Source: Rhizobacter terrae
GTDB taxonomy: Bacteria > Pseudomonadota > Gammaproteobacteria > Burkholderiales > Burkholderiaceae_C
NCBI RefSeq assembly: GCF_003852895.1
Contig: NZ_QUSW01000007.1
Coordinates: 295,411 to 359,410, forward strand
Reading direction: 5' to 3'
Length of the DNA: 64,000 bases
The position numbers and the translations under genes were made by a program. The notes beneath the pieces are model-generated. The model was not told the origin of the DNA. It saw only the letters and a program-made list of their open reading frames with translations, and made no database searches. This document shows, one piece after another, positions 6,926 to 34,354 of this stretch (positions are counted from its first letter, which is position 1; every line of letters begins with the position of its first letter).

Positions 6926-8122
6926 ATGCAAAAGCGCCAAGAAACGCGCCAAGCTTTGCGCCGCCTTGCCCTCGCCGCACTGGCCCTGGGCCTTCCCCTC
7001 ACGCTGAACGCCCCGGCCTTCGCCGAGGCCAAGCCTTTCAAGATCGGGTTCATCCTGCCCATGACCGGGCAGTCGGCCTCCACCGGCCGTCAGGAAGAAG
7101 CCGCCATCAAGCTGTACATGGCGCAAAACGGCAGCACGGTGGCCGGCCGCAAGATCGAGGTCATCGTCAAAGACGACGGCGGCGTGGCCGACCAGACCCG
7201 CCGCATCGCGCAGGAATTGGTGGTCAACGACAAGGTGGACGTGCTTGCCGGCTTTGGCCTCACGCCGCTGGCACTGGCCACCGCGCCCATCGCCACGCAG
7301 AGCAAGACGCCGATGGTGGTGACGGCCGCGGCCACGTCCATCATCACCGAGCAGTCGCCCTACATCGTGCGCACCAGCTTCACGCTGCCGCAGGTGAGCA
7401 TCGGCATCGCCGAGTGGGCGGCCAAGAACAAGATCAGGAAGGTGGTCACGCTGGTCACCGACTACGGGCCCGGCATCGACGCCGAGAAGTTCTTCAAGAG
7501 CCAGTTCCAGCTCAACGGCGGCCAGATCGTCGCCGAGATCCGCTCGCCACTGCGCAGCCCCGACTTCGCCCCCTTCCTGCAGAAGGTGCGTGATGCGCAG
7601 CCCGACGCGCTCTTCGTGTTCCTGCCTTCGGGCCAAGGCGCAGCCTTCATGAAGCAGTTCGCCGAACGCGGGCTGGACAAGGCAGGCATCAAGCTCATCG
7701 CCACCGGCGACGTGCTGGACGATGACCAACTCAACGACATGGGCGACGTGGCCCTGGGCGTGGTGAATTCGCACCACTACTCGGCCGCGCACCCGTCGGC
7801 GTTGAACAAGAAGTTCGTGACCGACTTCCAGGCTGCCAACAAGTTCAGGCCCAACTTCATGGCCGTGGCCGCCTACGACGGCATGCGCGTCATCTACAAG
7901 GCGCTGGAAGCCACCAAGGGGCAGGGCGGCGGCGAGGCGTTGCTGGGCGCGATGAAGGGCCAGATCTTCGAAAGCCCGCGCGGCCAGGTGCTCATCGACG
8001 CGCAGACCCGTGACATCGTGCAGGACGTGTACATCCGCAAGGTCGAGCGCAAGGACGGGCAGCTGTGGAACGTCGAGTTCGACGTGCAGAAGTCGGTGAA
8101 GGATCCCGGCAAGGCCAAGTGA
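6926..8122 (+). CDS. ABC importer periplasmic substrate-binding protein, HAAT/LivJ type
   Basis: A 398-aa protein with a clear signal peptide (twin arginine-containing basic start, Ala/Leu core, cleavage near AFAEA at about 32-36). The mature protein is a type I periplasmic binding fold beginning KPFKIGFILPMTGQSAS. ATG 6926 is chosen because it begins the signal peptide and follows GGAG. It is the first gene of a complete importer (binding protein, two permeases, two ATPases). Position behind boxCBA suggests that benzoate or a related aromatic acid is the substrate; this is inference, since the family also takes branched-chain amino acids and amides. Confidence 0.93.
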   Translation: MQKRQETRQALRRLALAALALGLPLTLNAPAFAEAKPFKIGFILPMTGQSASTGRQEEAAIKLYMAQNGSTVAGRKIEVIVKDDGGVADQTRRIAQELVVNDKVDVLAGFGLTPLALATAPIATQSKTPMVVTAAATSIITEQSPYIVRTSFTLPQVSIGIAEWAAKNKIRKVVTLVTDYGPGIDAEKFFKSQFQLNGGQIVAEIRSPLRSPDFAPFLQKVRDAQPDALFVFLPSGQGAAFMKQFAERGLDKAGIKLIATGDVLDDDQLNDMGDVALGVVNSHHYSAAHPSALNKKFVTDFQAANKFRPNFMAVAAYDGMRVIYKALEATKGQGGGEALLGAMKGQIFESPRGQVLIDAQTRDIVQDVYIRKVERKDGQLWNVEFDVQKSVKDPGKAK

Positions 8123-8138
8123 GCGCGCTGCGTAGACG

Positions 8139-8999
8139 ATGCTGACACTCCTCTTCGACGGCATCGCCTACGGCATGCTGCTGTTCGTGCTCGCGGTCGG
8201 GCTGGCCGTGACGCTGGGCCTGATGAACTTCATCAACCTCGCGCACGGCGCCTTCGCCATGGCCGGTGGCTACATCACCGTGCTGCTGATGAACCGGCTG
8301 GGCGTGCCGTTCCTGGCGACGCTGCCGCTGGCCTTCCTGCTCACCGCCGCGCTCGGCGCGCTGCTGGAACGCACGCTGTACCGGCCGATGTACGCCAAGC
8401 CGCACCTGGACCAGGTGCTGTTCTCCATCGGCCTGGTGTTCATGTCGGTGTCGGCGGTGGACTACTTCATCGGCTCGCAGCAGCAGATCATCCAGCTGCC
8501 GACCTGGCTGCAGGGCCGCTTCGATTTCGAATTCGTCGGTATCGGCAAGTACAGGCTCTTCATCGTGGTGCTGTGCGCGCTGCTCACCATCGCCTTGCAG
8601 ACCGTGTTGTCGCGTACACGCTTCGGCAGCCGTCTGCGCGCGTCGGTGGACGACCCGCGCGTCGCCTCGGGCCTGGGCATCAACGTGAACCAGGTCTTCC
8701 TGCTGACCTTCGCCGTGGGCTCCGGACTCGCGGGCCTGGGTGGCGCACTGGGCGCCGAAGTGCTGGGCCTCACGCCGGACTTCCCGCTGAAGTTCATGAT
8801 CTATTTCCTCATCGTGGTGTCGGTGGGCGGCACCACCACCATCACCGGGCCGCTGCTGGCCGCGCTGCTGCTGGGCGTGGCCGACGTGTTCGGCAAGTAC
8901 TACGTGCCCAAGCTGGGCGCCTTCATCGTCTACACGCTGATGATCGTCATCCTGACTTTCCGTCCGCAGGGCCTGTTCGGACGGGCGGCCACCAAATGA
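8139..8999 (+). CDS. ABC importer permease, LivH type
   Basis: A 286-aa inner-membrane protein with about eight hydrophobic segments. It contains the family signature GLMNFINLAHGAFAMAGGY near the N-terminus and the EAA-like cytoplasmic loop around VDDPRVASGLGINVN. It starts 16 bp after the binding-protein gene and its stop overlaps the next start as ATGA (8996-8999), showing operon organisation and coupled translation. Confidence 0.93.
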   Translation: MLTLLFDGIAYGMLLFVLAVGLAVTLGLMNFINLAHGAFAMAGGYITVLLMNRLGVPFLATLPLAFLLTAALGALLERTLYRPMYAKPHLDQVLFSIGLVFMSVSAVDYFIGSQQQIIQLPTWLQGRFDFEFVGIGKYRLFIVVLCALLTIALQTVLSRTRFGSRLRASVDDPRVASGLGINVNQVFLLTFAVGSGLAGLGGALGAEVLGLTPDFPLKFMIYFLIVVSVGGTTTITGPLLAALLLGVADVFGKYYVPKLGAFIVYTLMIVILTFRPQGLFGRAATK

Positions 9000-9961
9000 C
9001 GGCATCGCCTTCCGTCGCTCAAAGCCTGGCCGCGCAATCGCGCTGGCGCTGGTGGGAGATCGCCCTGGGCGTGGCGGCGCTGGCCTCGTGGTGGCTGGTG
9101 GGCGAGCATGCCTTGCTGGCCAACGAGATCGCCATCCTCGCGTTGTTCGCGGTCTCGCTGGACCTGATCCTCGGCTATGCGGGCATCGTGTCGCTCGGGC
9201 ATGCGGCCTTCTTCGGCTTCGGGGCTTACACGGCGGCGCTGTTCGCCAAGCACGTGATGCCCGATCCGCTGGTGGGGCTGGTGGTGGCCATCGCAGCGGC
9301 GACGCTGCTGGGGCTGGTGTGCAGCCTGCTCATCCTGCGGGGCTCCGACCTCACCCGCCTGATGGTCACGCTCGGCGTGGCGCTGGTGCTGTTCGAACTG
9401 GCCAACAAGCTGGACTGGCTCACGGGCGGCATCGACGGCCTGCAAGGCGTCACCATCGCCCCGCTGCTTGGGCGATTCGAGTTCGACCTGTATGGCCGCG
9501 TGGCGTACGGGTACAGCCTGGCGGTGCTGGTCGTGGCCTTGCTGATCGCGCGGCGCGTGGTGCACTCGCCCTTCGGCGTGTCGCTCAAGGCGCTGCGCGA
9601 CAACCGGCTGCGCGCCACCAGCATCGGGATGGATGTGCACATGCGGCTCGTGGCCGTCTACGCCCTCGCCGCGGCACTGGCGGGCGCATCCGGAGCACTG
9701 CTGGCGCAGACCACCGGCTTCGCCTCGCTGGACGTGCTGGACTTCCACCGCAGCGCGGACGTGCTGCTGGTGCTGGTGATCGGCGGCACGGGCTATCTCT
9801 ACGGCGGCATCTTCGGTGCCATCGCCTTCAAGCTGCTGCACGACCTCATCTCCGCCTGGACGCCGCAGTACTGGACCTTCTGGCTGGGCCTGTTCCTGGT
9901 GCTGCTGGTGATGGTGGGACGCGAGCGCCTCGTGCGGCCGTGGACATGGTGGAGGCGTTGA
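8996..9961 (+). CDS. ABC importer permease, LivM type
   Basis: A 321-aa inner-membrane permease from ATG 8996. The motif LGYAGIVSLGHAAFFGFGAY is typical of LivM-like subunits, and the loop LKALRDNRLRATSIGMDV is the ATPase-contacting EAA loop. It pairs with the LivH-type subunit to form the channel. The stop TGA shares its last base with the start of the following ATPase gene at 9961. Confidence 0.93.
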   Translation: MTASPSVAQSLAAQSRWRWWEIALGVAALASWWLVGEHALLANEIAILALFAVSLDLILGYAGIVSLGHAAFFGFGAYTAALFAKHVMPDPLVGLVVAIAAATLLGLVCSLLILRGSDLTRLMVTLGVALVLFELANKLDWLTGGIDGLQGVTIAPLLGRFEFDLYGRVAYGYSLAVLVVALLIARRVVHSPFGVSLKALRDNRLRATSIGMDVHMRLVAVYALAAALAGASGALLAQTTGFASLDVLDFHRSADVLLVLVIGGTGYLYGGIFGAIAFKLLHDLISAWTPQYWTFWLGLFLVLLVMVGRERLVRPWTWWRR

Positions 9962-22863: not shown

Positions 22864-23304
22864 ATGTCCAAAGTCCTCCTCGACGCCACCGACCGCGAGC
22901 TCATCGCCTTGCTGCGCGAGAACGCCCGCGCCTCCACCGCCGAGCTGGCGCGGCGGCTCAAGCTGTCGCGCACCACGGTGCAAAGCCGCATCGAGCGCCT
23001 GGAGCGCCAGCGCGTCATCGCCGGCTACACCATCACCGTGCCTGACGAAATCGAGGCCTCCCTGGTGCGGGCCCACGTGATGATCACCCTCGTGCCCAAG
23101 CAAAGCGGCGCCATCGAGACCGCCCTGCGCAAGATCCCGGAAGTGCGGGTGCTGCACTCGGTCAGCGGGCCTTTCGACCTCATCGCCATCGCGGCGGCCG
23201 CCTCCATTGGCGAGCTCGACGAACTCATCGACCGCATTGGCGCGCTCGACGGCGTGGAGCGCACCACCTCCGCAATCGTGCTTTCCACACGAATCGAGCG
23301 ATAA
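22864..23304 (+). CDS. Lrp/AsnC-family regulator of the adjacent dehydrogenase
   Basis: A 146-aa protein. Helix-turn-helix at about 20-55 (ASTAELARRLKLSRTTVQSRIERLERQRVI) and an RAM domain with VLHSVSGPFDLIAIAAA. The length and layout are those of a local Lrp/AsnC regulator. Divergent from the saccharopine-dehydrogenase-type gene with a 147-bp gap that holds paired palindromes, so it very likely controls that gene and itself. Confidence 0.92.
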   Translation: MSKVLLDATDRELIALLRENARASTAELARRLKLSRTTVQSRIERLERQRVIAGYTITVPDEIEASLVRAHVMITLVPKQSGAIETALRKIPEVRVLHSVSGPFDLIAIAAAASIGELDELIDRIGALDGVERTTSAIVLSTRIER

Positions 23305-23411: not shown

Positions 23412-24692
23412 ATGAAAAACGCCGGATCCACCGTTCAGATCGAGGTCGACGCACTCCAGGTTGGGATGTTCATCCATCTCGACATGGGCTGGATGTCGCA
23501 CCCGTTCCCACTCAGCAGCTTCCGCATCGCGTCGGAACAGCAGATCGCGACCATCCGCAAGCTGGGCGTGAAGAAGCTGCGATGGAGTCCCGAGCAAAGC
23601 GTGCTGGCGCAGGCCGAGGACGAGGCCCAGGCTGCCGCTGCCGCGCAGGCCCAGCAGTCCACCCAGGACGAATCCCCCGAACAGCGTGCCGAGCGCGAAC
23701 GGCGCGCTGCCACGGCCCGCGAGCGTGCCGCGCTGGCGGTGTGCGAGCGGCAGTTCACCGAAGCCACGCACGAGACCCGGGTGCTGACCGACCTTGTCGC
23801 CAGCCAGCCGCACGAGGCCCGCGACCGCGCCACGGCGCTGACCCAGGCCTTCGCGCAGAAGATGATGGGCGACGGCGAAGTCTGCATCCGCCTGCTCACC
23901 GAGGCCGCCGGCGACCGCGCCTGCGCGCACGCGGTGAACGTGACGCTGATCTCCATGCTCATGGGCCGGACCTTCGGCCTGTCTGAATCCGAGATGCTGG
24001 ACCTGGGCGTGGGTGCGCTGCTGCACGACATGGGCAAGCTGGACCTGCCCCCGCGCGTGCGCCACCGCGAAGACCACTTCACCCCGAGCGAAGCCAAGTT
24101 CTACGAAGAGCATGTGACGCACGGCGTGTCGCATGCCCTCAAGATGGGCCTCACGCCCGGCGCGACGCTGGTGATTGCGCAGCACCACGAGCATGCCGAC
24201 GGCAGCGGTTTCCCGCTCAAGCTCGGACACGAACGCATGACGCCAGCGTCGTGCATCGTCGCGCTGGTGAACCGCTACGACAACCTGTGCAATCCGCACG
24301 CCGCCTCCAAGGCGCTCACGCCGCACGAGGCCTTGTCGCTGCTGTTCGCGCAGGGCAAGAACAAGTACGACACCGCCATCCTCAGCGCCTTCATCAAGAT
24401 GATGGGCGTATACCCGCCGGGCTCCATCGTGCAGCTCACCGACGACCGCTACGGCATGGTGGTGAGCGTGAACGCCTCGCGCCCGCTCAAGCCGCGGGTG
24501 TGCGTGTTCGATGCGAACCTGCCCGAAGCCGAGGCGCCGGTCATCGACCTGGAACAGACCCCCAAGCTGGGCATCCGCCGCAGCATCCGCCCCGCGGCCT
24601 TGCCGGCCGATGCGGCGGGCAACCTGTCGCCGCGCCTGCGCGTGGCTTATTTCTTCGAAGCCGACAGAGAACAAGAGGACGCGACTGCATGA
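23412..24692 (+). CDS. HD-GYP domain phosphodiesterase with N-terminal DUF3391
   Basis: A 426-aa protein from ATG 23412 (GAGGG upstream). Residues about 8-60 form DUF3391 (VGMFIHLDMGWMSHPFPLSSF), then an Ala/Gln/Glu-rich coiled linker, then an HD-GYP domain. The metal-binding residues are intact: H205-D206 (LLHDMGK) and H258-H259-E260. The name motif reads GFP (266-268) in place of GYP, a conservative change. It should hydrolyse cyclic di-GMP. Its stop overlaps the GGDEF-EAL start as ATGA (24689-24692). First gene of the eight-gene signalling cluster. Confidence 0.92.
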   Translation: MKNAGSTVQIEVDALQVGMFIHLDMGWMSHPFPLSSFRIASEQQIATIRKLGVKKLRWSPEQSVLAQAEDEAQAAAAAQAQQSTQDESPEQRAERERRAATARERAALAVCERQFTEATHETRVLTDLVASQPHEARDRATALTQAFAQKMMGDGEVCIRLLTEAAGDRACAHAVNVTLISMLMGRTFGLSESEMLDLGVGALLHDMGKLDLPPRVRHREDHFTPSEAKFYEEHVTHGVSHALKMGLTPGATLVIAQHHEHADGSGFPLKLGHERMTPASCIVALVNRYDNLCNPHAASKALTPHEALSLLFAQGKNKYDTAILSAFIKMMGVYPPGSIVQLTDDRYGMVVSVNASRPLKPRVCVFDANLPEAEAPVIDLEQTPKLGIRRSIRPAALPADAAGNLSPRLRVAYFFEADREQEDATA

Positions 24693-26788
24693 AAGCTCCC
24701 AGCATGACCGAGGGCGTGGCGCTGGCCGGCATCGAGTTTGCAGCCGGGCTGATCGACGGCATGCTCGACGCCGTCTGGCTCATCGATGCGGCCAACTTGC
24801 GCGTGGTGGCGGCCAATGCCGCGGCCGGTGCGCTGATGGGTGCGGATGCATCCTCGCTGTGCGGGCGCGAGATCGTGGAGCTGTGCGCCACGCCTGAAGA
24901 CCTGTTCTTCTGGGGCGAAGCCGCGTCCGGCCTCACGCAGGAGATCGAGTCCGAGACCTGGCTGCGCCGCTTCGACGGCATCACCATCCCGGTCAAGCGC
25001 CGCATCAGCCGCGTGAGCATGGGCCCGGCGCACGACCTCTTCGTCGTGGTACTGCACGATTCCAGCGAACGCCGCCGCGTGGAGGACGAGCTGGAAGAGC
25101 GCATCGAGGAACTGGCCGCGACGCTCGAATCCACCGCCGATGGGGTGCTGGTCACCGACATCGCCGGCAACATCCGCTCCTTCAACCAGACCTTCGCCGC
25201 GCTGTGGGGCCTGCCGCCCGAACTGCTGCGCCGCCGCGACGACGACGCGATCATGGACGCGATGGCGCGCGCCGTGACCGACCCCTCGGCCTACATGCAC
25301 CGCGTCGCCGCCAACGAGGACACCGAGGTCCGCGAGGTGGTGGACACCGTCACCCTGCTGTCGGGCCGCGTGCTGCAGCGGGTGATGCTGCCGCAGATGA
25401 GCCATGGCCGCGTGGTCGGGCGGGTGCACTCCTACCGCGACATCAGCGAGCGGCTGGAGGCCATCCACCGCATCGAGACGCTGTCGAGCACCGACGCGCT
25501 GACAGGGCTGCCCAACCGCCGCGTGCTGGCCGACCGCGTGGACTTCTCCATCGCGATGGCGCAGCGCGAAGGCACGCCGTTCGCGCTGCTGTTCGCCAAC
25601 CTCGACCGCTTCAAGCACGTCAACGACACCCTGGGCCACGAGTTCGGCGACCGCGTGCTGATGGAGGTGGCCGAGCGCCTGAAGGCCTGCCTGCGCCAGG
25701 TCGACACCGTGACGCGCCTGGGCGGCGACGAATTCGTGATGCTGGTCCACCAGGCCGATGCGCTGGGCGCGGAGTCCGCCGCACGCCGCATCCTGGAGGC
25801 CATGCACAGGCCCTTCACCCACGGCGGCATGAGCTTCGTGGTGACCTGCAGCCTGGGCATCGTGCTGTACCCGCGCGACGGCGCCGGACTGGACGAACTC
25901 GTGCGCCGCGCCGATGACGCGATGCAGGAGGTCAAGTCTGCCGGCCGCGCCAGCTACCGCTTCCACCGCAGCTGCGAGGTGCCCGGCCAGGATGGCGGGC
26001 CGCGCAGCCGCCTGCGCCTGGACAACGCCATGCGCCAGGCGCTGGTGGAAGGGCACTTCCGCCTGCACTACCAGCCGCAGGTGGACATGAACACCGGCAA
26101 GGTGCTGGGCGCGGAGGCGCTGATCCGCTGGCACGACCCGGAGCTGGGCAACATCTCGCCCGGCGAATTCATTCCCGTGGCCGAGCAGAGCGGCTTCATC
26201 GTTCCCATCGGCGACTGGGTGCTGCGCCAAGCCGTCCACCAGGCGGCGCAGTGGTACCGCCAAGGCCGTGGCCTGGTGGTGTCCATCAACGTGTCGGCGG
26301 TGCAGTTCCACCGCGCGGGCTTCGTGGACCGCGTGGCCTCGGCGCTGCACGCCGCCGGCCTGCCGGCCGGAATGCTGGAGCTGGAACTCACCGAATCCAT
26401 CCTCATCCAGGACGCGCAAGAGGCCCTGCTGCGATTGCAGGCATTGAGCGACCTGGGCGTGAAGCTGGCCATCGACGACTTCGGCACGGGCTACTCCAGC
26501 CTGGGCTACCTCAAGCGCTTTCCCATCGACCGGCTGAAGATCGACCGCAGCTTCGTGCGCGGCCTGCCCGGCGACGAGAGCGACGTGGGCATCGTCAACG
26601 CCATCGTGAATCTCGGGCGCGCACTGCACCTGGAGATCGTGGCCGAAGGCGTGGAGACCGAGGACCAGCGCCAGTTCCTCATGCGCACCGGCTGCGAGCA
26701 ATACCAGGGCTTCCTCTTCGCCCCGGCGCTGGACAGCCGCAGCTTCGAAGCCAAGCTCGATCCTGAGAATCCGCCGGCTGGCTTGTAA
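24689..26788 (+). CDS. PAS-PAS-GGDEF-EAL cyclic-di-GMP enzyme
   Basis: A 699-aa cytosolic protein. Two PAS-like modules (about 10-130 and 135-255) precede a GGDEF domain with canonical G345-G346-D347-E348-F349 and an EAL domain with E476-A477-L478. EAL metal and catalytic residues look complete: NVS, ELTES, IDDFGTGYSS, LKID and AEGVET. In GGDEF the first metal-binding position, normally Asp in DLDRFK, is N304 (ANLDRFK), so cyclase activity may be reduced or absent. No membrane segment. Likely net activity: phosphodiesterase regulated by PAS and perhaps GTP. Confidence 0.93.
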   Translation: MKAPSMTEGVALAGIEFAAGLIDGMLDAVWLIDAANLRVVAANAAAGALMGADASSLCGREIVELCATPEDLFFWGEAASGLTQEIESETWLRRFDGITIPVKRRISRVSMGPAHDLFVVVLHDSSERRRVEDELEERIEELAATLESTADGVLVTDIAGNIRSFNQTFAALWGLPPELLRRRDDDAIMDAMARAVTDPSAYMHRVAANEDTEVREVVDTVTLLSGRVLQRVMLPQMSHGRVVGRVHSYRDISERLEAIHRIETLSSTDALTGLPNRRVLADRVDFSIAMAQREGTPFALLFANLDRFKHVNDTLGHEFGDRVLMEVAERLKACLRQVDTVTRLGGDEFVMLVHQADALGAESAARRILEAMHRPFTHGGMSFVVTCSLGIVLYPRDGAGLDELVRRADDAMQEVKSAGRASYRFHRSCEVPGQDGGPRSRLRLDNAMRQALVEGHFRLHYQPQVDMNTGKVLGAEALIRWHDPELGNISPGEFIPVAEQSGFIVPIGDWVLRQAVHQAAQWYRQGRGLVVSINVSAVQFHRAGFVDRVASALHAAGLPAGMLELELTESILIQDAQEALLRLQALSDLGVKLAIDDFGTGYSSLGYLKRFPIDRLKIDRSFVRGLPGDESDVGIVNAIVNLGRALHLEIVAEGVETEDQRQFLMRTGCEQYQGFLFAPALDSRSFEAKLDPENPPAGL

Positions 26789-26812
26789 GCCTGCAAAGCC
26801 TGCAGTAGTACC

Positions 26813-26865
26813 GGAAAGTTGGCGCTTTCCCTGGGTTTGACAACCGCACAGCGGCCTGAAGATTC
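26813..26865 (+). promoter_or_regulatory. Hairpin and possible promoter before the EAL-REC gene
   Basis: GGAAAG-TTGGCG-CTTTCC (26813-26830) is a perfect six-base-pair hairpin, followed by a consensus -35 TTGACA (26837-26842) and a poor -10 AGATTC (26860-26865) at 17-bp spacing. The 142-bp gap is the only sizeable break within the signalling cluster, so a second promoter is plausible but weakly supported. Confidence 0.35.
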
Positions 26866-26930
26866 GGGCGTTCACCTGCTGACATCGATAACGGCGGGGA
26901 ATGCGGGAATCAGCTCAGGGAGCTTGCTGT

Positions 26931-28529
26931 ATGTCGACTGTTGTGGCGCCGGTAACGGCCGCGACGGATGTGCGCCACGCACTTGCCGCGGGCCAGTTCG
27001 GGCTGGTTTTCCAGCCGCAGATCCATCTGGCCACCGGCCAGGTCGTGGGCTTCGAGGCCCTGTTGCGATGGCATCACCCACAACGCGGCGTCCTGGCGCC
27101 TTCGGAATTCCTCCCCGACATTGAACGCTGCGGTCTGGCCGCAGACGTCGCGCGCTGGGTGATCGAGCAAGGCGTGCTGCAGCTGCGCGCCTGGGAGGAC
27201 CTCGGGCATCGAGGCCTGCAGATGGCGGTGAACGTTCCCGTGAGCGTCTTCAACGACGATGGCATCACGGTGCTCCTGCAGGACCTCCTGGCGCGCCATG
27301 AAATCTCGGGCAACCAGATCGAGCTGGAATTGACCGAGCGCACGCTGACCGATGCGCTGCCCGCCGTCGTGCAGAACCTGCAGGCGCTGCGCCGCCAGGG
27401 CATTGCCGTGGCGATCGACGATTTCGGCACCGGCTATTCCAACCTGCGCCAGCTGGCGGGGCTGCCGCTGGACTGCCTGAAGATCGACCTGAGCATCGTG
27501 CAGGGCGTGGTGACCGACCCGTCGGACGCGATGGTGGCGCGCATGACCTGCGAGATCGCACGTGCGCTCAAGCTGCGCATCGTGGTCGAGGGCGTCGAGA
27601 CCGAGGGGCAGCTGCAGTTCTTCTCCAACCTGCGCTGTGAACTGGCACAGGGCTTCTTCTTCGCGCGACCGATGGAGGCCGCGGACACCATGGCCATGCT
27701 CGCCTCGGGCCGTGCCTTCGCGCCGGCGGCGCCCCAGCTGGCGGTCGGCGAGCGGCACCTGCTGCTGCTGGACGACGAGCCCAACATCCTGCGCTCGCTG
27801 CGCCGTGTCTTCCGCGGCCAGCCCTGGACGGTGCACGTCGCCCACACGCCCGACGAGGCCTTCGAGCTGCTGGCACGGCATCCGGTGGGCGTGGTCATGT
27901 CCGACCAGCGCATGCCGCTGATGCGCGGCACCGACTTCCTTGCGAAGGTCAAGCGCCTGTACCCCGACACGGTGCGCATCGTGCTGTCGGGCTACACCGA
28001 GCTGCAGTCGGTGACCGAAGCCATCAACGAAGGCGCGATCTACAAGTTCCTCACCAAGCCGTGGAACGACACGCAGCTCAACGAGGAGATCGAGCAGGCC
28101 TTCCGCCAGTTCGAGATGGTGGCCGACACCCAGCGGCTGCAGCGGCGCCTGCGCGAGATCAACAAGCAGCTGGAAAGCCGCCTGCTGCAGAACGAGGAAC
28201 GCCTGCAGCGCGAAGAGGCGGCGCTGGACGTGACGCACGAGGCGCTGGGCGTGGTGCCGGTGCCCATCCTCGGCGTCGATGCGAACGGAATGATCGCCAT
28301 CAGCAACGCCGCTGCCGACATGCTGCTGGGCGGTGGCGTGTCGCTGGTGGGCGAGCACGTCGGCGACGTGCTGCCCGAGCACGGCGACAGCAGGTTCGAC
28401 AGCCTGCACCACGGCACGCGCCAGGTGCGCATTGCCGGCACGACCTATGAAGTTCGGTGCAACGACCTGGGCGCGGCCTCGCGCGGGATGGGCACCGTCA
28501 TCACATTGATCCAGGGAGCCAATGCATGA
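26931..28529 (+). CDS. EAL-REC-PAS response regulator
   Basis: A 532-aa protein with unusual order: EAL domain first (E42-A43-L44, then IDDFGTGYSN and VEGVET), receiver domain second (D281/D282 acidic pair, phospho-acceptor D325 in MSDQRMP, and FLTKPW), then a coiled segment and a PAS-like C-terminus (about 430-530). The EAL domain has ELTER and LKIDLSIV, close to active enzymes. Phosphorylation probably tunes the phosphodiesterase or its partners. The stop overlaps the HDOD gene start (ATGA at 28526-28529). No DNA-binding domain. Confidence 0.92.
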   Translation: MSTVVAPVTAATDVRHALAAGQFGLVFQPQIHLATGQVVGFEALLRWHHPQRGVLAPSEFLPDIERCGLAADVARWVIEQGVLQLRAWEDLGHRGLQMAVNVPVSVFNDDGITVLLQDLLARHEISGNQIELELTERTLTDALPAVVQNLQALRRQGIAVAIDDFGTGYSNLRQLAGLPLDCLKIDLSIVQGVVTDPSDAMVARMTCEIARALKLRIVVEGVETEGQLQFFSNLRCELAQGFFFARPMEAADTMAMLASGRAFAPAAPQLAVGERHLLLLDDEPNILRSLRRVFRGQPWTVHVAHTPDEAFELLARHPVGVVMSDQRMPLMRGTDFLAKVKRLYPDTVRIVLSGYTELQSVTEAINEGAIYKFLTKPWNDTQLNEEIEQAFRQFEMVADTQRLQRRLREINKQLESRLLQNEERLQREEAALDVTHEALGVVPVPILGVDANGMIAISNAAADMLLGGGVSLVGEHVGDVLPEHGDSRFDSLHHGTRQVRIAGTTYEVRCNDLGAASRGMGTVITLIQGANA

Positions 28530-29335
28530 ACGTAGCCACCTCGGCGAGCAGCCGAACCAAGAGGCCTGTGCTGCCGCCACCGTTTCCGGCGGTGGCGGTG
28601 CAATTGATCCAGCAGATGCAGGACCCCGACGCCTCGGCGGCGGACGTGGGCCGGCTGATCGAGCTCGACCCTTCGCTCACCGCGTCGCTGCTGCGCCTGG
28701 TCAATTCGCCGTTCTTTGGCATGCGGCGGCAGATTGCCGGCGTCTCCGAAGCGGTCACGGTGCTGGGCATGAGCGCGGTGCGGCGCATGGTGATGTCGGT
28801 GGCGGTGGTCACGCCGCTGCGCAAGCCGGAGATCGACCCGGCCTTTGCGAAGTCGCAGTGGCACCACACGGTGAGCTGCGCCGCCATCGCGCGCCGTCTC
28901 ATTGCCGACGATGCAGCCGCCGCCGAACTGGCCTTCACGGCGGGCCTGCTGCACGACATCGGCCAGGTGCACCTGATGCAGCTGCATGGCCCGGCCTATG
29001 CGGCGCTGCATGCGGAGTCGCCCGATACCGACTGGCGCGGCATCGAGGCCGAGCGCTTCGGCCAGCCGCACGACTGGCTCGGTGCCGACCTGCTCGAAGC
29101 CTGGGGCCTGCCGCAGGTGATTGCCGATGCTGCACGCCTGCACCATGCGGCGCCTCCGCTGACCCACCTGACGCTGGTGCAGCAGGCGGTGTGCGTGGCC
29201 AATCGCCTGGCCGGCACGCCGGCCGAAGCGGCGCAGGCGGCGGTGATGTCGCCCAAGTCGCTCGTGCCGGTGAAGCAGGCCGTGGAAGAAGCCCGCGCTG
29301 AGATCGACACGATGGCCAGCCTGCTCAACGCCTAG
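28526..29335 (+). CDS. HDOD domain protein
   Basis: A 269-aa protein. The HDOD region runs from LPPPFPAVAVQLIQQMQDPD through LVNSPFFGMRRQI to TAGLLHDIGQVHLMQ. HDOD proteins relate to HD hydrolases but mostly act as protein-interaction modules in signalling; catalytic activity is generally not shown. It lies between the EAL-REC regulator and the GAF kinase, eight bp before the latter, so it may be a scaffold or adaptor for the cluster. Confidence 0.92.
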   Translation: MNVATSASSRTKRPVLPPPFPAVAVQLIQQMQDPDASAADVGRLIELDPSLTASLLRLVNSPFFGMRRQIAGVSEAVTVLGMSAVRRMVMSVAVVTPLRKPEIDPAFAKSQWHHTVSCAAIARRLIADDAAAAELAFTAGLLHDIGQVHLMQLHGPAYAALHAESPDTDWRGIEAERFGQPHDWLGADLLEAWGLPQVIADAARLHHAAPPLTHLTLVQQAVCVANRLAGTPAEAAQAAVMSPKSLVPVKQAVEEARAEIDTMASLLNA

Positions 29336-29343
29336 GACGACGC

Positions 29344-30717
29344 ATGGACGCCAACACCGGAGCCGCCTTGTCGCTCGTCGAGGAGCTGCACGAACTCAGC
29401 CGCGAGTCCGACGGCGACAGCCAGTCGCTGCAGGCCATGCTCAGCCACATCGTGCGCGGCTTCGGCGCGCAAAGCGGCAGCCTGGCGGTCGTCGATCGCC
29501 TGGAGCCCTCGCAGATGCGCATCGTGGCCGGCATCGACCTGCCCGAAGGCGTGATCGGCCAGACGGTCGCCCTGGGCACCGGCGTGCTGGGCAAGGTCGC
29601 GCAAAGCGGCGAACCCATGCTCATCAACGGCGAGCTGCGCCGGGCCGACAGCGACGGCAGCACGCCGCGCGCGCAGGGACGCCCGCGCTCGGCCATCTGC
29701 TGGCCGCTGGCCATCAAGAACCGCCGCATCGGCGCCTTGTCCATGAACCGCCTGGGCGAAGACAACCCCTTCACCGCCGACGACGTGGTGCGCGGACGCT
29801 CGCTGGTCACGCTGGTGGCGCTGGTGGTGGACAACGCCAACCTGCACAGCGAGCAGATGGAGCGCATCGAGCGGCTGTCGCAGCTCAACGAAGAGATGCG
29901 CACGATGAACGAGCGGCTGCAGACGACGCAGCAGGCCCTGCTGCAGTCCGAGAAGATGGCCTCCATCGGCCAGCTCGCCGCGGGCGTGGCGCACGAGATC
30001 AACAACCCGGTGGGCTATGTCTACTCCAACATCAGCACGCTGCAGGGCTACGTGCAGGAGCTGCTTCGCGTGGTGCGCCACCTCAGTGGCAAGGACAGCG
30101 GGCCTGCGCCGCAATGCGACGTCGACTTCCTGGAAGAAGACATTCCGCAGCTGGTGAGCGAGACGCGCGAAGGCCTGGACCGCGTCAAGAAGATCGTGCA
30201 GGACCTCAAGGATTTCTCGCGCATCGACAAGAGCGACGACTGGGAAGACGCGAACCTCGTCAAGGGCCTGGAGAGCACGCTGAACATCGTGCAGAACGAG
30301 ATCAAGTACAAGGCCTCGGTCGTGAAGGAGCTGGTGCCTCTTCCCGACGTGCCCTGCCTGCCCACGCAGCTCAACCAGGTCTTCATGAACCTGCTGGTGA
30401 ATGCGGCGCAGGCGATTCCGGCCAAGGGCACCATCACCCTGCGCTCGGGCTTCGATGCCTCGCAGGTGTGGGTGGAGGTGGCCGATGACGGCTGCGGCAT
30501 GCCCCCGGAAGTGCAGGCACGCATCTTCGAGCCGTTCTACACCACCAAGCCGGTGGGCAAGGGCACGGGGCTCGGGCTGTCGGTGTCGTACTCCATCGTG
30601 CGCAAGCACAACGGCAAGATCGTGCTCAAGAGCGCTGCCGGCCAGGGCACCAGCTTTCGCGTCGTGCTTCCGCGCGTGAGGGAAGGGCAGTTGCGAGAGG
30701 AGGCCCTCCATGGCTGA
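29344..30717 (+). CDS. GAF-domain sensor histidine kinase
   Basis: A 457-aa cytosolic kinase: GAF domain at about 20-170, coiled coil at about 178-205, HisKA with phospho-acceptor H217 in GVAHEINNP, and HATPase with NLLVNAAQAI, DDGCGM and GKGTGLGLSVSY. It is closely similar in its kinase part to the second kinase of the cluster (32618). Its stop overlaps the next receiver-domain gene by eight bases. Likely phosphorylates one or more of the three receiver domains here. Confidence 0.93.
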   Translation: MDANTGAALSLVEELHELSRESDGDSQSLQAMLSHIVRGFGAQSGSLAVVDRLEPSQMRIVAGIDLPEGVIGQTVALGTGVLGKVAQSGEPMLINGELRRADSDGSTPRAQGRPRSAICWPLAIKNRRIGALSMNRLGEDNPFTADDVVRGRSLVTLVALVVDNANLHSEQMERIERLSQLNEEMRTMNERLQTTQQALLQSEKMASIGQLAAGVAHEINNPVGYVYSNISTLQGYVQELLRVVRHLSGKDSGPAPQCDVDFLEEDIPQLVSETREGLDRVKKIVQDLKDFSRIDKSDDWEDANLVKGLESTLNIVQNEIKYKASVVKELVPLPDVPCLPTQLNQVFMNLLVNAAQAIPAKGTITLRSGFDASQVWVEVADDGCGMPPEVQARIFEPFYTTKPVGKGTGLGLSVSYSIVRKHNGKIVLKSAAGQGTSFRVVLPRVREGQLREEALHG

Positions 30718-32014
30718 TGCCATCGGGGCGGGCTTCTCGGTGCTCGCCGTCGACGACGAACCCAACATCGTGTCGGCGCTGCGCCGCACGCTGCGCTCGC
30801 GCGGCTTCACGGTGCACACGGCGCTGGGCGGCGCCGAAGGGCTGCAACTGCTCGAATCGCAGAGCGTGGACGTCATCATCTCCGACATGCGCATGCCCGA
30901 GATGACCGGCGCGCAGTTCCTGCAGGCCGCACGCGCCAAGCTGCCCGAGGCGGTGCGCATCCTGCTCACTGGCTACGCGGACATCACCTCCACCATCGAG
31001 GCGGTGAACCACGGAGAGATCTTCCGCTACCTGTCCAAGCCCTGGGAAGACGAGGTGCTGCTGTCGGTGGTGAACGACGGCCTGGAGCGCAAGCGCCTGG
31101 CCCGCGAGCGCGACCAGCTGCTCGCGCTGACGAAGGAACAGAACGCGCAGCTGCAGCGCCACGCCGAGGAGCTGGAGCTGAAGGTGCAGGAGCGCACGCA
31201 GGACCTGCAGAAGGCCAGCGACGAGATCAAGGTGGCGCATGGGCGCATCAGCGCCGATTTCCAGGGCACGGTCAAGGTGCTGTCCACCATCCTCGAACAG
31301 CGGCCGGGCCTGACCGGTGGCGTCTCGCGCCGGGTGGCCGAGAAGGTCAAGAACCTCGGGCCGCGGGTGGGCCTGTGCAACGAGGAGCTGCAGGACACCA
31401 TCTATGCCGCGCTGCTCGAAGACCTGGGCAAGCTCACCTTCTCCGAGCAATGGCTGACCACGCCGCTGCACGCGCTCAACACCCGCGACCGCGACGAGTT
31501 CATGAAGCATCCGCTGCATGCGGATGGCTACCTCATGTCGCTGCAGTCGCTGCGCGGCGCGGGCCGCGTGCTGCGCAGCCTGTACGAGCGCTGGGACGGC
31601 AAGGGCATGCCCGCACACCTCAAGGGCGATGCGATCCCGCTGGGTGCCCGCGTGCTGCGGGCCGCCAGCGAGTACGAGCGTCTGCGGGCGGGCAGCATCG
31701 AGACGCGCGCCTTCACCCACCAGGACGCCTGCAACTGGCTCAAGAACGGCAGCGAGACCCGCTTCGACCCCAAGGTGTCGGCGGCCTTCGTCGCGCTGCT
31801 GAATGAAGAGGCCAACACCGTTCCCACCAGGACGTTGCCGGTGTCCGGCCTGAAGCCGGGCATGGTGCTGGCGCAGGACCTGACCGCGGGCATCGGCGTG
31901 CTGCTGCTGTCCAAGGACCACCTGCTCGAAGAAGCCATGATCCGCCGCCTGGATGCCTTCCAGCGCCGCATCGGCAAGGACTTGCAAGTCATCGTTTATC
32001 GGAGCACCACATGA
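30710..32014 (+). CDS. Receiver-domain regulator with degenerate HD-GYP domain
   Basis: A 434-aa protein. The receiver domain is complete (D15/D16, phospho-acceptor D59 in ISDMRMP, and YLSKPW), followed by a coiled coil (about 130-180) and an HD-GYP-like domain. The catalytic HD is replaced by E237-D238 (LLEDLGK), the HHE motif by L291-Y292-E293, and GYP by GMP at 299-301. The domain is therefore probably not a phosphodiesterase and acts by binding. Overlaps its neighbours on both sides by 8 and 4 bases. Confidence 0.92.
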   Translation: MADAIGAGFSVLAVDDEPNIVSALRRTLRSRGFTVHTALGGAEGLQLLESQSVDVIISDMRMPEMTGAQFLQAARAKLPEAVRILLTGYADITSTIEAVNHGEIFRYLSKPWEDEVLLSVVNDGLERKRLARERDQLLALTKEQNAQLQRHAEELELKVQERTQDLQKASDEIKVAHGRISADFQGTVKVLSTILEQRPGLTGGVSRRVAEKVKNLGPRVGLCNEELQDTIYAALLEDLGKLTFSEQWLTTPLHALNTRDRDEFMKHPLHADGYLMSLQSLRGAGRVLRSLYERWDGKGMPAHLKGDAIPLGARVLRAASEYERLRAGSIETRAFTHQDACNWLKNGSETRFDPKVSAAFVALLNEEANTVPTRTLPVSGLKPGMVLAQDLTAGIGVLLLSKDHLLEEAMIRRLDAFQRRIGKDLQVIVYRSTT

Positions 32015-32595
32015 GCGACATCCGGATCATGCTCATCGACGACGAGCCGCACGTGCTGTCGGCCCTGCAGCGCCTGCTGCGTCAGCATCCGCCCGTGCCG
32101 GGGCAGCCCTTCGCGGTGGAGGCCTACACCTCGCCGCTGGCGGCCATCGAAGCCGCCCAGGAGCGCAGCATCGACGTGGTCATTTCGGACTACCGCATGC
32201 CCGAGCTGGACGGCGTGGAGACACTGCGGCGCATCCGCGAGCTGCAGCCACAGACGGGACGCATCCTGCTGTCGGGCTCGCGCGAGTTCGACACCGTGGT
32301 CGACGCGGTCAACGTCGCGCAGGTGGGGCGCATCGTCATCAAGCCCTGGGGCGAGGTGGAACTCGTGGCGGCCATCCGCGACGTGGTGGAGACGCGCCGC
32401 CTGCGGCTGGAGAACGCTGAACTCGCCGACGAGGTGCGTGCACAGCGCGGCCTCCTGTCGCAGCAGGATGCGGAACTGCGTCGCATCGAGAACCTGTGGC
32501 CGGGCATCACGAGGGTCGAGTGGGGCGCTGACGGCAGCATCTGCATCAGCGAGAAGGACGTGATCGATACCGGCTTCGGCCGATCGCCCGGTTGA
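32011..32595 (+). CDS. Single-domain response regulator with C-terminal coiled extension
   Basis: A 194-aa protein: receiver domain (IDDEP near residue 10, phospho-acceptor Asp in ISDYRMP, IVIKPW) and a C-terminal helical tail (about 130-194) without a DNA-binding motif. It resembles the receiver domains of the two neighbouring regulators. Start overlaps the previous stop as ATGA. Probably a phosphorelay intermediate or allosteric partner. Confidence 0.9.
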   Translation: MSDIRIMLIDDEPHVLSALQRLLRQHPPVPGQPFAVEAYTSPLAAIEAAQERSIDVVISDYRMPELDGVETLRRIRELQPQTGRILLSGSREFDTVVDAVNVAQVGRIVIKPWGEVELVAAIRDVVETRRLRLENAELADEVRAQRGLLSQQDAELRRIENLWPGITRVEWGADGSICISEKDVIDTGFGRSPG

Positions 32596-32617
32596 GCGTG
32601 GCGCGAGAGGGGTCGAG

Positions 32618-34240
<1,623 letters not shown>

Positions 34241-34247
34241 AACCCTG

Positions 34248-34273
34248 GCCGTCGCAGGAGACGGCGTTTCTTT
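34248..34273 (+). terminator. Intrinsic terminator of the signalling cluster
   Basis: GCCGTC-GCAGGA-GACGGC (34248-34265) is a perfect six-base-pair GC-rich stem followed by GTTTCTTT. It lies immediately after the last kinase gene and marks the end of the co-directional eight-gene unit. Confidence 0.8.
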
Positions 34274-34354
34274 GTACAGTGGCACCGACAGGAACCCCGA
34301 GGGGCCCGGTCCCGCACCGGAGGTGGCGTTCCTGGCCTGAAGCGACGGGGTGCC

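What the first reader, a model, noticed from the sequence alone, without database searches (positions are those of the whole stretch)
23412..34273. Eight-gene cyclic-di-GMP and phosphorelay cluster without any DNA-binding output
Seen: HD-GYP, PAS-GGDEF-EAL, EAL-REC-PAS, HDOD, GAF kinase, REC-pseudo-HD-GYP, REC, membrane kinase, all on the plus strand with mostly overlapping or near-abutting starts and one terminator at the end. Known: each domain is common, but such a dense set is not a standard named operon to me. Inference: two sensors feed three receivers whose outputs are c-di-GMP turnover and protein contacts via HDOD. The complete absence of transcription factors makes it a self-contained post-translational circuit.
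Basis: partly seen in the sequence, partly recalled or inferred. Interest (0 to 1): 0.65.

Follow-up and report, generated by a model that had tools for sequence, protein, structure and literature searches.

The report
NosR-type c-di-GMP phosphorelay gene cassette
The eight neighbouring genes are real, but they are two units: an older pair of c-di-GMP genes, and a six-gene two-kinase, three-receiver cassette related to known nitric-oxide-responsive c-di-GMP circuits; it recurs in many related bacteria with different sensors and often with its HD-GYP enzyme disabled.

Summary
All eight genes are present as described, with no DNA-binding domain. They are not one unit. A same-genus complete genome has lrp–g1–g2–cfa with nothing between g2 and cfa, so g3–g8 (26931–34240) is a separable cassette beside a resident HD-GYP + PAS-GGDEF-EAL pair (g1–g2).

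The cassette recurs. Its REC–HD-GYP protein (g6) passes NCBI's curated cut-off for the NosR family and has relatives in 66 of 401 same-family genomes (37 of 141 genera). At 59 such loci, 57 have a kinase, 41 a lone REC, 35 an HDOD and 33 an EAL–REC-type regulator or REC–PAS; two other loci have the window's order exactly.

The closest known systems are the Shewanella Hno network (two kinases; EAL and degenerate HD-GYP regulators) and NosP–NosK–NosR. The window lacks their NO sensors and instead has GAF and CHASE5 kinases.

Two further findings: about half of g6-family proteins keep the full metal site, but it was lost on several lineages, including this one; and the lone REC carries a conserved tail found almost only beside NosR.

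Likely mechanism: two paralogous kinases control an EAL phosphodiesterase and a catalytically dead HD-GYP partner that modulates it. New variant of a known kind; biochemistry untested.

The parts
23412..24692 (+). g1: DUF3391 + HD-GYP c-di-GMP phosphodiesterase, metal ligands intact (GYP is GFP). Resident pair, not part of the cassette
   Evidence: Pfam DUF3391 7.6e-26 and HD_5 1.3e-23; present without g3-g8 in G003 at 71% identity
24689..26788 (+). g2: PAS-PAS-GGDEF-EAL, both catalytic motifs intact. Resident pair
   Evidence: Pfam; G003 has it directly before cfa; truncated inside GGDEF in G001; aligned to 5m3c and MorA
26789..26930 (.). 142-bp boundary between resident pair and cassette
26931..28529 (+). 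g3: EAL-REC-(PAS) phosphodiesterase response regulator, EAL motifs intact; homologues in other genera carry a mostly degenerate GGDEF in front
   Evidence: Pfam EAL 3.7e-68, REC 5.5e-19; EAL aligned to MorA; homologues
28526..29335 (+). g4: HDOD protein without receiver
   Evidence: Pfam HDOD 1.9e-49; solved relatives include MmoQ 3p3q
29344..30717 (+). g5: cytoplasmic GAF histidine kinase
   Evidence: Pfam GAF_2 4e-11, HisKA, HATPase_c; no hydrophobic segment
30710..32014 (+). g6: NosR-family REC + pseudo-HD-GYP (metal-site pattern V-ED-H-LY-E against H-HD-H-HH-D)
   Evidence: NF053512 476 bits, cut-off 400; site alignment
32011..32595 (+). g7: REC with long helix and conserved C-terminal hairpin motif (LENxxLAD...ELRRLE..PGITxVxWGPDGS)
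   Evidence: Pfam REC 1.6e-20; tail conservation; AlphaFold mean pLDDT 85.5
32618..34240 (+). g8: membrane CHASE5-HAMP histidine kinase; absent from the cassettes of G001 and G002
   Evidence: Pfam CHASE5 3.8e-20; absence; two hydrophobic segments

Best explanation
g3-g8 is a NosR-type branched two-component cassette that controls c-di-GMP breakdown. A soluble GAF kinase (g5) and a membrane CHASE5 kinase (g8), with closely related catalytic parts, both act on the same set of receivers: the EAL phosphodiesterase regulator g3, the catalytically dead HD-GYP regulator g6, and the tailed REC g7. By analogy with HnoB/HnoD, g6 binds g3 and restrains or tunes its phosphodiesterase activity according to phosphorylation. 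g7 acts as a competing phosphate acceptor or as an adaptor through its coiled-coil and hairpin tail. g4 (HDOD) is a protein-contact partner. The output is altered, probably lowered, c-di-GMP and so a shift between attached and motile life. The cassette sits between a resident c-di-GMP pair (g1-g2) and cfa and is gained or lost separately from that pair. Shown: genes, domains, family membership of g6, conserved association, separability from g1-g2, residue loss in g6, kinase paralogy. Inferred: phosphotransfer wiring, the g6-g3 interaction, the roles of g4 and g7, and the direction of the phenotype.
For: g6 passes the NosR cut-off. A g6 homologue occurs in 66 of 401 family genomes and 37 of 141 genera. 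At 59 loci: kinase 57, lone REC 41, HDOD 35, EAL-REC or REC-PAS 33, HDOD>kinase>NosR in direct order 21; L101 and L110 match the window's g3-g8 order. G003 and G004 lack g3-g8 between g2 and cfa. g5 and g8 kinase domains are 57% identical, next best in the genome 39%. EAL motifs are intact in g3; five of seven metal ligands are lost in g6. Same-family regulators sit beside FIST (L026, L027, L091, L109, L135) or H-NOX (L028). Literature: HnoD lacks phosphodiesterase activity and suppresses HnoB, with two kinases feeding the system (PMC6335343); B. pseudomallei NosK phosphorylates NosR, whose HD-GYP is degenerate (PMC12570481).
Against: No biochemical or expression data. About half of the NosR homologues keep all metal ligands (39 of 80), so action as a dead HD-GYP is not general in the family. 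About 44% of family loci show no EAL-REC or REC-PAS nearby, so g6-type proteins often work without g3. g8 is missing from the two nearest cassettes, so the second input is optional.
Confidence: 0.6

Rival explanations
1. All eight genes form one operon and one circuit, with g1 and g2 adding a second phosphodiesterase and a cyclase to the phosphorelay output.
For: Same strand, 4-bp g1/g2 overlap, and order kept in G001 (L010/L089: lrp-g1-g2-g3-g4-g5-g6-g7-cfa).
Against: G003 has lrp-g1-g2-cfa and G004 has g2-cfa, both without g3-g8. G001 keeps the cassette with g2 cut off inside GGDEF. There is a 142-bp gap at the boundary. In the other genera sampled the cassette is not preceded by this pair on the same strand.
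Confidence: 0.2
2. It is a nitric-oxide-sensing Nos or Hno system in which a distant FIST or H-NOX protein controls g5.
For: g6 is NosR-family; relatives beside FIST or H-NOX exist; the genome holds one FIST gene.
Against: No H-NOX in the genome. The single FIST is on another contig and not next to a kinase in the stretch fetched, and scores 86 bits, whereas the FIST genes lying beside NosR in G005, G145, G163 and G057 score 138-172. Both kinases carry their own sensor domains.
Confidence: 0.08
3. The receivers act mainly through HDOD and REC-tail protein contacts (for example on motility or transcription machinery), and c-di-GMP turnover is secondary.
For: HDOD and the lone REC are at least as frequent in the cassettes as the EAL regulator; g6 is catalytically degenerate; Herbaspirillum and Duganella cassettes keep REC-PAS without an EAL in that protein.
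Against: g3 keeps a full set of EAL catalytic motifs, and the best-studied relatives act through a phosphodiesterase (PMC6335343).
Confidence: 0.2

Closest known systems
Shewanella oneidensis Hno network (HnoX/HnoK/HnoS, HnoB, HnoC, HnoD)
   Same: Two kinases converge on an EAL regulator and a degenerate HD-GYP regulator (PMC6335343).
   Different: No H-NOX here; the third regulator is a REC with a conserved tail instead of the transcription factor HnoC; an HDOD gene is added. Some gamma relatives (L026, L027, L020) do have an HTH-REC.
NosP-NosK-NosR of Burkholderia pseudomallei
   Same: A REC plus degenerate HD-GYP regulator called NosR, after which the NCBI family that g6 passes is named; both sites are degenerate (PMC12570481).
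   Different: No FIST sensor in the cluster; kinases carry GAF and CHASE5 sensors; EAL-REC, HDOD and REC-tail are added.
Legionella pneumophila NosP-NahK-NarR
   Same: Kinase controlling a receiver-linked c-di-GMP enzyme (PMC8846402).
   Different: NarR is a single regulator with cyclase and phosphodiesterase activity; the review describes no HD-GYP partner, and the sensor is FIST.
RpfC/RpfG-type REC-HD-GYP systems (from general knowledge)
   Same: REC-HD-GYP regulator with a kinase.
   Different: The RpfG HD-GYP is catalytically active; g6 has lost five of seven metal ligands.

Membership tests
NosR family (NCBIfam NF053512) | Full-length score over the curated cut-off of 400 bits | tested here: met
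   g6 476 bits, model positions 1-422 of 422
NosR family (NCBIfam NF053512) | Regulation of c-di-GMP by the protein | not testable with these tools
   needs biochemistry
NosP-NosK-NosR nitric oxide system | FIST (NosP) gene with the kinase and regulator | tested here: not met
   none in the cluster; one FIST on another contig
NosP-NosK-NosR nitric oxide system | Kinase lacking a recognised sensor of its own | tested here: not met
   g5 GAF, g8 CHASE5
Shewanella Hno network | H-NOX sensor | tested here: not met
   no PF07700 match in the genome
Shewanella Hno network | Two kinases | tested here: met
   g5 and g8
Shewanella Hno network | EAL response regulator with intact active site | tested here: met
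   g3
Shewanella Hno network | Degenerate HD-GYP response regulator | tested here: met
   g6 has lost five of seven ligands
Shewanella Hno network | DNA-binding regulator HnoC | tested here: not met
   no HTH in any of the eight proteins
Shewanella Hno network | HD-GYP regulator inhibits the EAL regulator | not testable with these tools
   needs purified proteins
Active HD-GYP phosphodiesterases | H, HD, H, HH, D metal ligands | tested here: not met
   g6 reads V, ED, H, LY, E, whereas g1, the reference of the alignment, has all seven

The most novel reading that the evidence does not exclude
This is a widespread, unnamed modular c-di-GMP cassette (EAL-REC, HDOD, kinase, NosR, tailed REC, kinase) in which sensors are exchanged freely (GAF, PAS, hemerythrin, CHASE5, Cache, FIST or H-NOX nearby), the HD-GYP member has repeatedly turned into a pseudoenzyme, and a new family of tailed REC proteins takes the place of the transcription factor of some gamma-proteobacterial versions.
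Probability: 0.5. Interest if true: 0.55.

Novelty: new variant of a known kind. Interest (0 to 1): 0.42.

Why it matters
NosR and Hno circuits are described as nitric oxide systems. Here the same regulator set appears in many genera with quite different sensors, which suggests a general plug-in controller of c-di-GMP breakdown. The repeated loss of the HD-GYP metal site within one family, next to intact relatives, makes it directly testable how an enzyme becomes an allosteric regulator. The tailed REC protein is a conserved part with no known role.

Tried and rejected
Heme sensing by the g5 GAF: weak similarity to the DevS/DosT heme GAF domains (E about 1e-4), but by eye no histidine in the expected region; rejected. 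Coupling of HD-GYP decay to loss of the EAL partner: the independent-pairs test on the NosR tree gave too few pairs (median p 1); no conclusion. Distant FIST as NosP: judged unlikely. The tail motif as a general domain: a search of 151 genomes gave 25 matches, 22 beside NosR, one at a contig edge and two probable relics. The primary HnoD paper was not held, so its content is cited from a review. A literature search for H-NOX together with HDOD found nothing; the library is limited to open-licence papers, so absence of a name for this cassette is not proven. No fold search was run for the g7 model, because the receiver domain would dominate it.

Full report
What is there. The eight ORFs exist at the stated coordinates with the stated domains. 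g1 and g2 overlap by 4 bp; g3/g4, g5/g6 and g6/g7 overlap by 4-8 bp; g4/g5 and g7/g8 are 8 and 22 bp apart; g2 and g3 are 142 bp apart. None of the eight has a DNA-binding domain. Pfam calls no PAS in the C-terminus of g3, though it calls one in a homologue (L018).

Two units, not one. In G003, a same-genus genome on one contig, the order is dehydrogenase-lrp-g1-g2-cfa, with no g3-g8; G004 has g2 followed directly by cfa. G001 has g3-g7 but g2 is cut off inside GGDEF; G002 has g3-g7, with its contig starting inside g3. Both lack g8. So g3-g8 is a unit separable from g1-g2, and g8 is optional. cfa identities group G001 with G003 and G004 rather than with G000 and G002, so loss in G003/G004 is at least as likely as gain; this is unresolved.

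The cassette recurs. g6 has matches at E<=1e-80 in 66 of 401 family genomes and 37 of 141 genera. Of 59 loci examined (window included), 57 have a kinase in the same run of genes, 41 a lone REC, 35 an HDOD and 33 an EAL-REC or REC-PAS; HDOD>kinase>NosR occurs in direct order in 21. L101 and L110, from two species of one other genus, have GGDEF-EAL-REC>HDOD>kinase>NosR>REC>kinase, the window's order, and L150 has it too behind one more kinase. HDOD genes number about 10 per genome, so roughly 0.65 of 27 genomes should have one within 6 kb by chance; at least 20 do (my count). The REC tail, searched in 151 whole genomes, gave 25 matches, 22 beside NosR.

What g6 is. It scores 476 bits against NCBI's nitric_RR_NosR model (cut-off 400) and is the only protein in the genome over that cut-off. 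Aligned to the intact HD-GYP g1, its seven metal ligands read V, ED, H, LY, E. In 80 homologues 39 keep all seven; the intact/lost state needs at least seven changes on a quick maximum-likelihood tree (the tree has many weak branches, so this is approximate). The window's pattern is nearly shared with G001 and G002 on a long stem (1.32 changes per site). So 'pseudo-HD-GYP' is right for this lineage but is not a property of the family.

What g3 is. Its EAL aligns to MorA with the catalytic motifs in place. Homologues in other genera usually carry a GGDEF in front, mostly with a broken signature motif (GGKEF, GQGEY, DGxF and others). The window's g3 and that of G001 have no GGDEF in front.

Kinases. 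The g5 and g8 catalytic parts are each other's closest relatives in the genome (57%; next best 39%). Partner kinases downstream of NosR elsewhere carry PAS (22 of 38), hemerythrin (9 of 38) or Cache (1); CHASE5 was found only in the window. Kinases placed just before NosR carry GAF (8 of 29) or PAS (9 of 29). This looks like sensor exchange on a constant relay.

g7. Behind the receiver lies a tail with the consensus LENxRLADxxR..G.LSxQE.E.RRLExxEPGITxVxWGPDGSV, modelled as one long helix and a short hairpin (mean pLDDT 85.5, lower in the tail). Its function is unknown.

Relation to known systems. In S. oneidensis two kinases feed HnoB (EAL), HnoD (degenerate HD-GYP, suppresses HnoB) and the transcription factor HnoC (PMC6335343). 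In B. pseudomallei, NosP controls NosK, which phosphorylates NosR with a degenerate HD-GYP (PMC12570481). g6 relatives next to H-NOX (L028) and FIST (L026, L027, L091, L109, L135) tie both to this family, and some gamma-proteobacterial versions have an HTH-REC. The window has neither sensor, so it is not filed as a nitric oxide system; it works like the Hno network by anatomy.

Limits. Everything about wiring is inference. ORF calls in relatives are mechanical, and neighbourhood classes rest on profiles seeded from the window's own proteins, so distant members may be missed. Loci cut by contig ends lower the neighbourhood counts.

Noticed in passing
window 34260-34290, and upstream of cfa in L088, L089, L132, L133: A T-rich element (like TTTnTTTGTAnAGTcg) is conserved upstream of cfa in five genus members, with or without the cassette; possibly the cfa promoter rather than a terminator tail.
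   Followed up: partly
window 22864-23304: Lrp/AsnC regulator on the same strand 107 bp before g1, divergent from a saccharopine-dehydrogenase-like gene; the pair is kept in G001 and G003.
   Followed up: partly
L158 about 9530-9651 (G003) and L162 about 8108-8206 (G120): Free-standing fragments of the g7 tail without the receiver, probably relics of lost cassettes.
   Followed up: partly
L096, L099, L100, L102, L104, L107: A DUF3391-HD-GYP gene and a PAS-PAS-kinase with a g2-like PAS pair lie in opposite orientation beside the NosR cassette, as if a g1-g2-like pair joined it in another form.
   Followed up: no
A1 kinases: Nine of 38 partner kinases downstream of NosR carry hemerythrin domains, a possible oxygen or NO sensor.
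   Followed up: no
L089 6199-7155 (G001): g2 homologue ends inside GGDEF, leaving a PAS-PAS protein in front of g3.
   Followed up: partly
L024 9947-13456: A Gallionella locus carries two NosR-type genes, one with an intact metal site and one degenerate.
   Followed up: no
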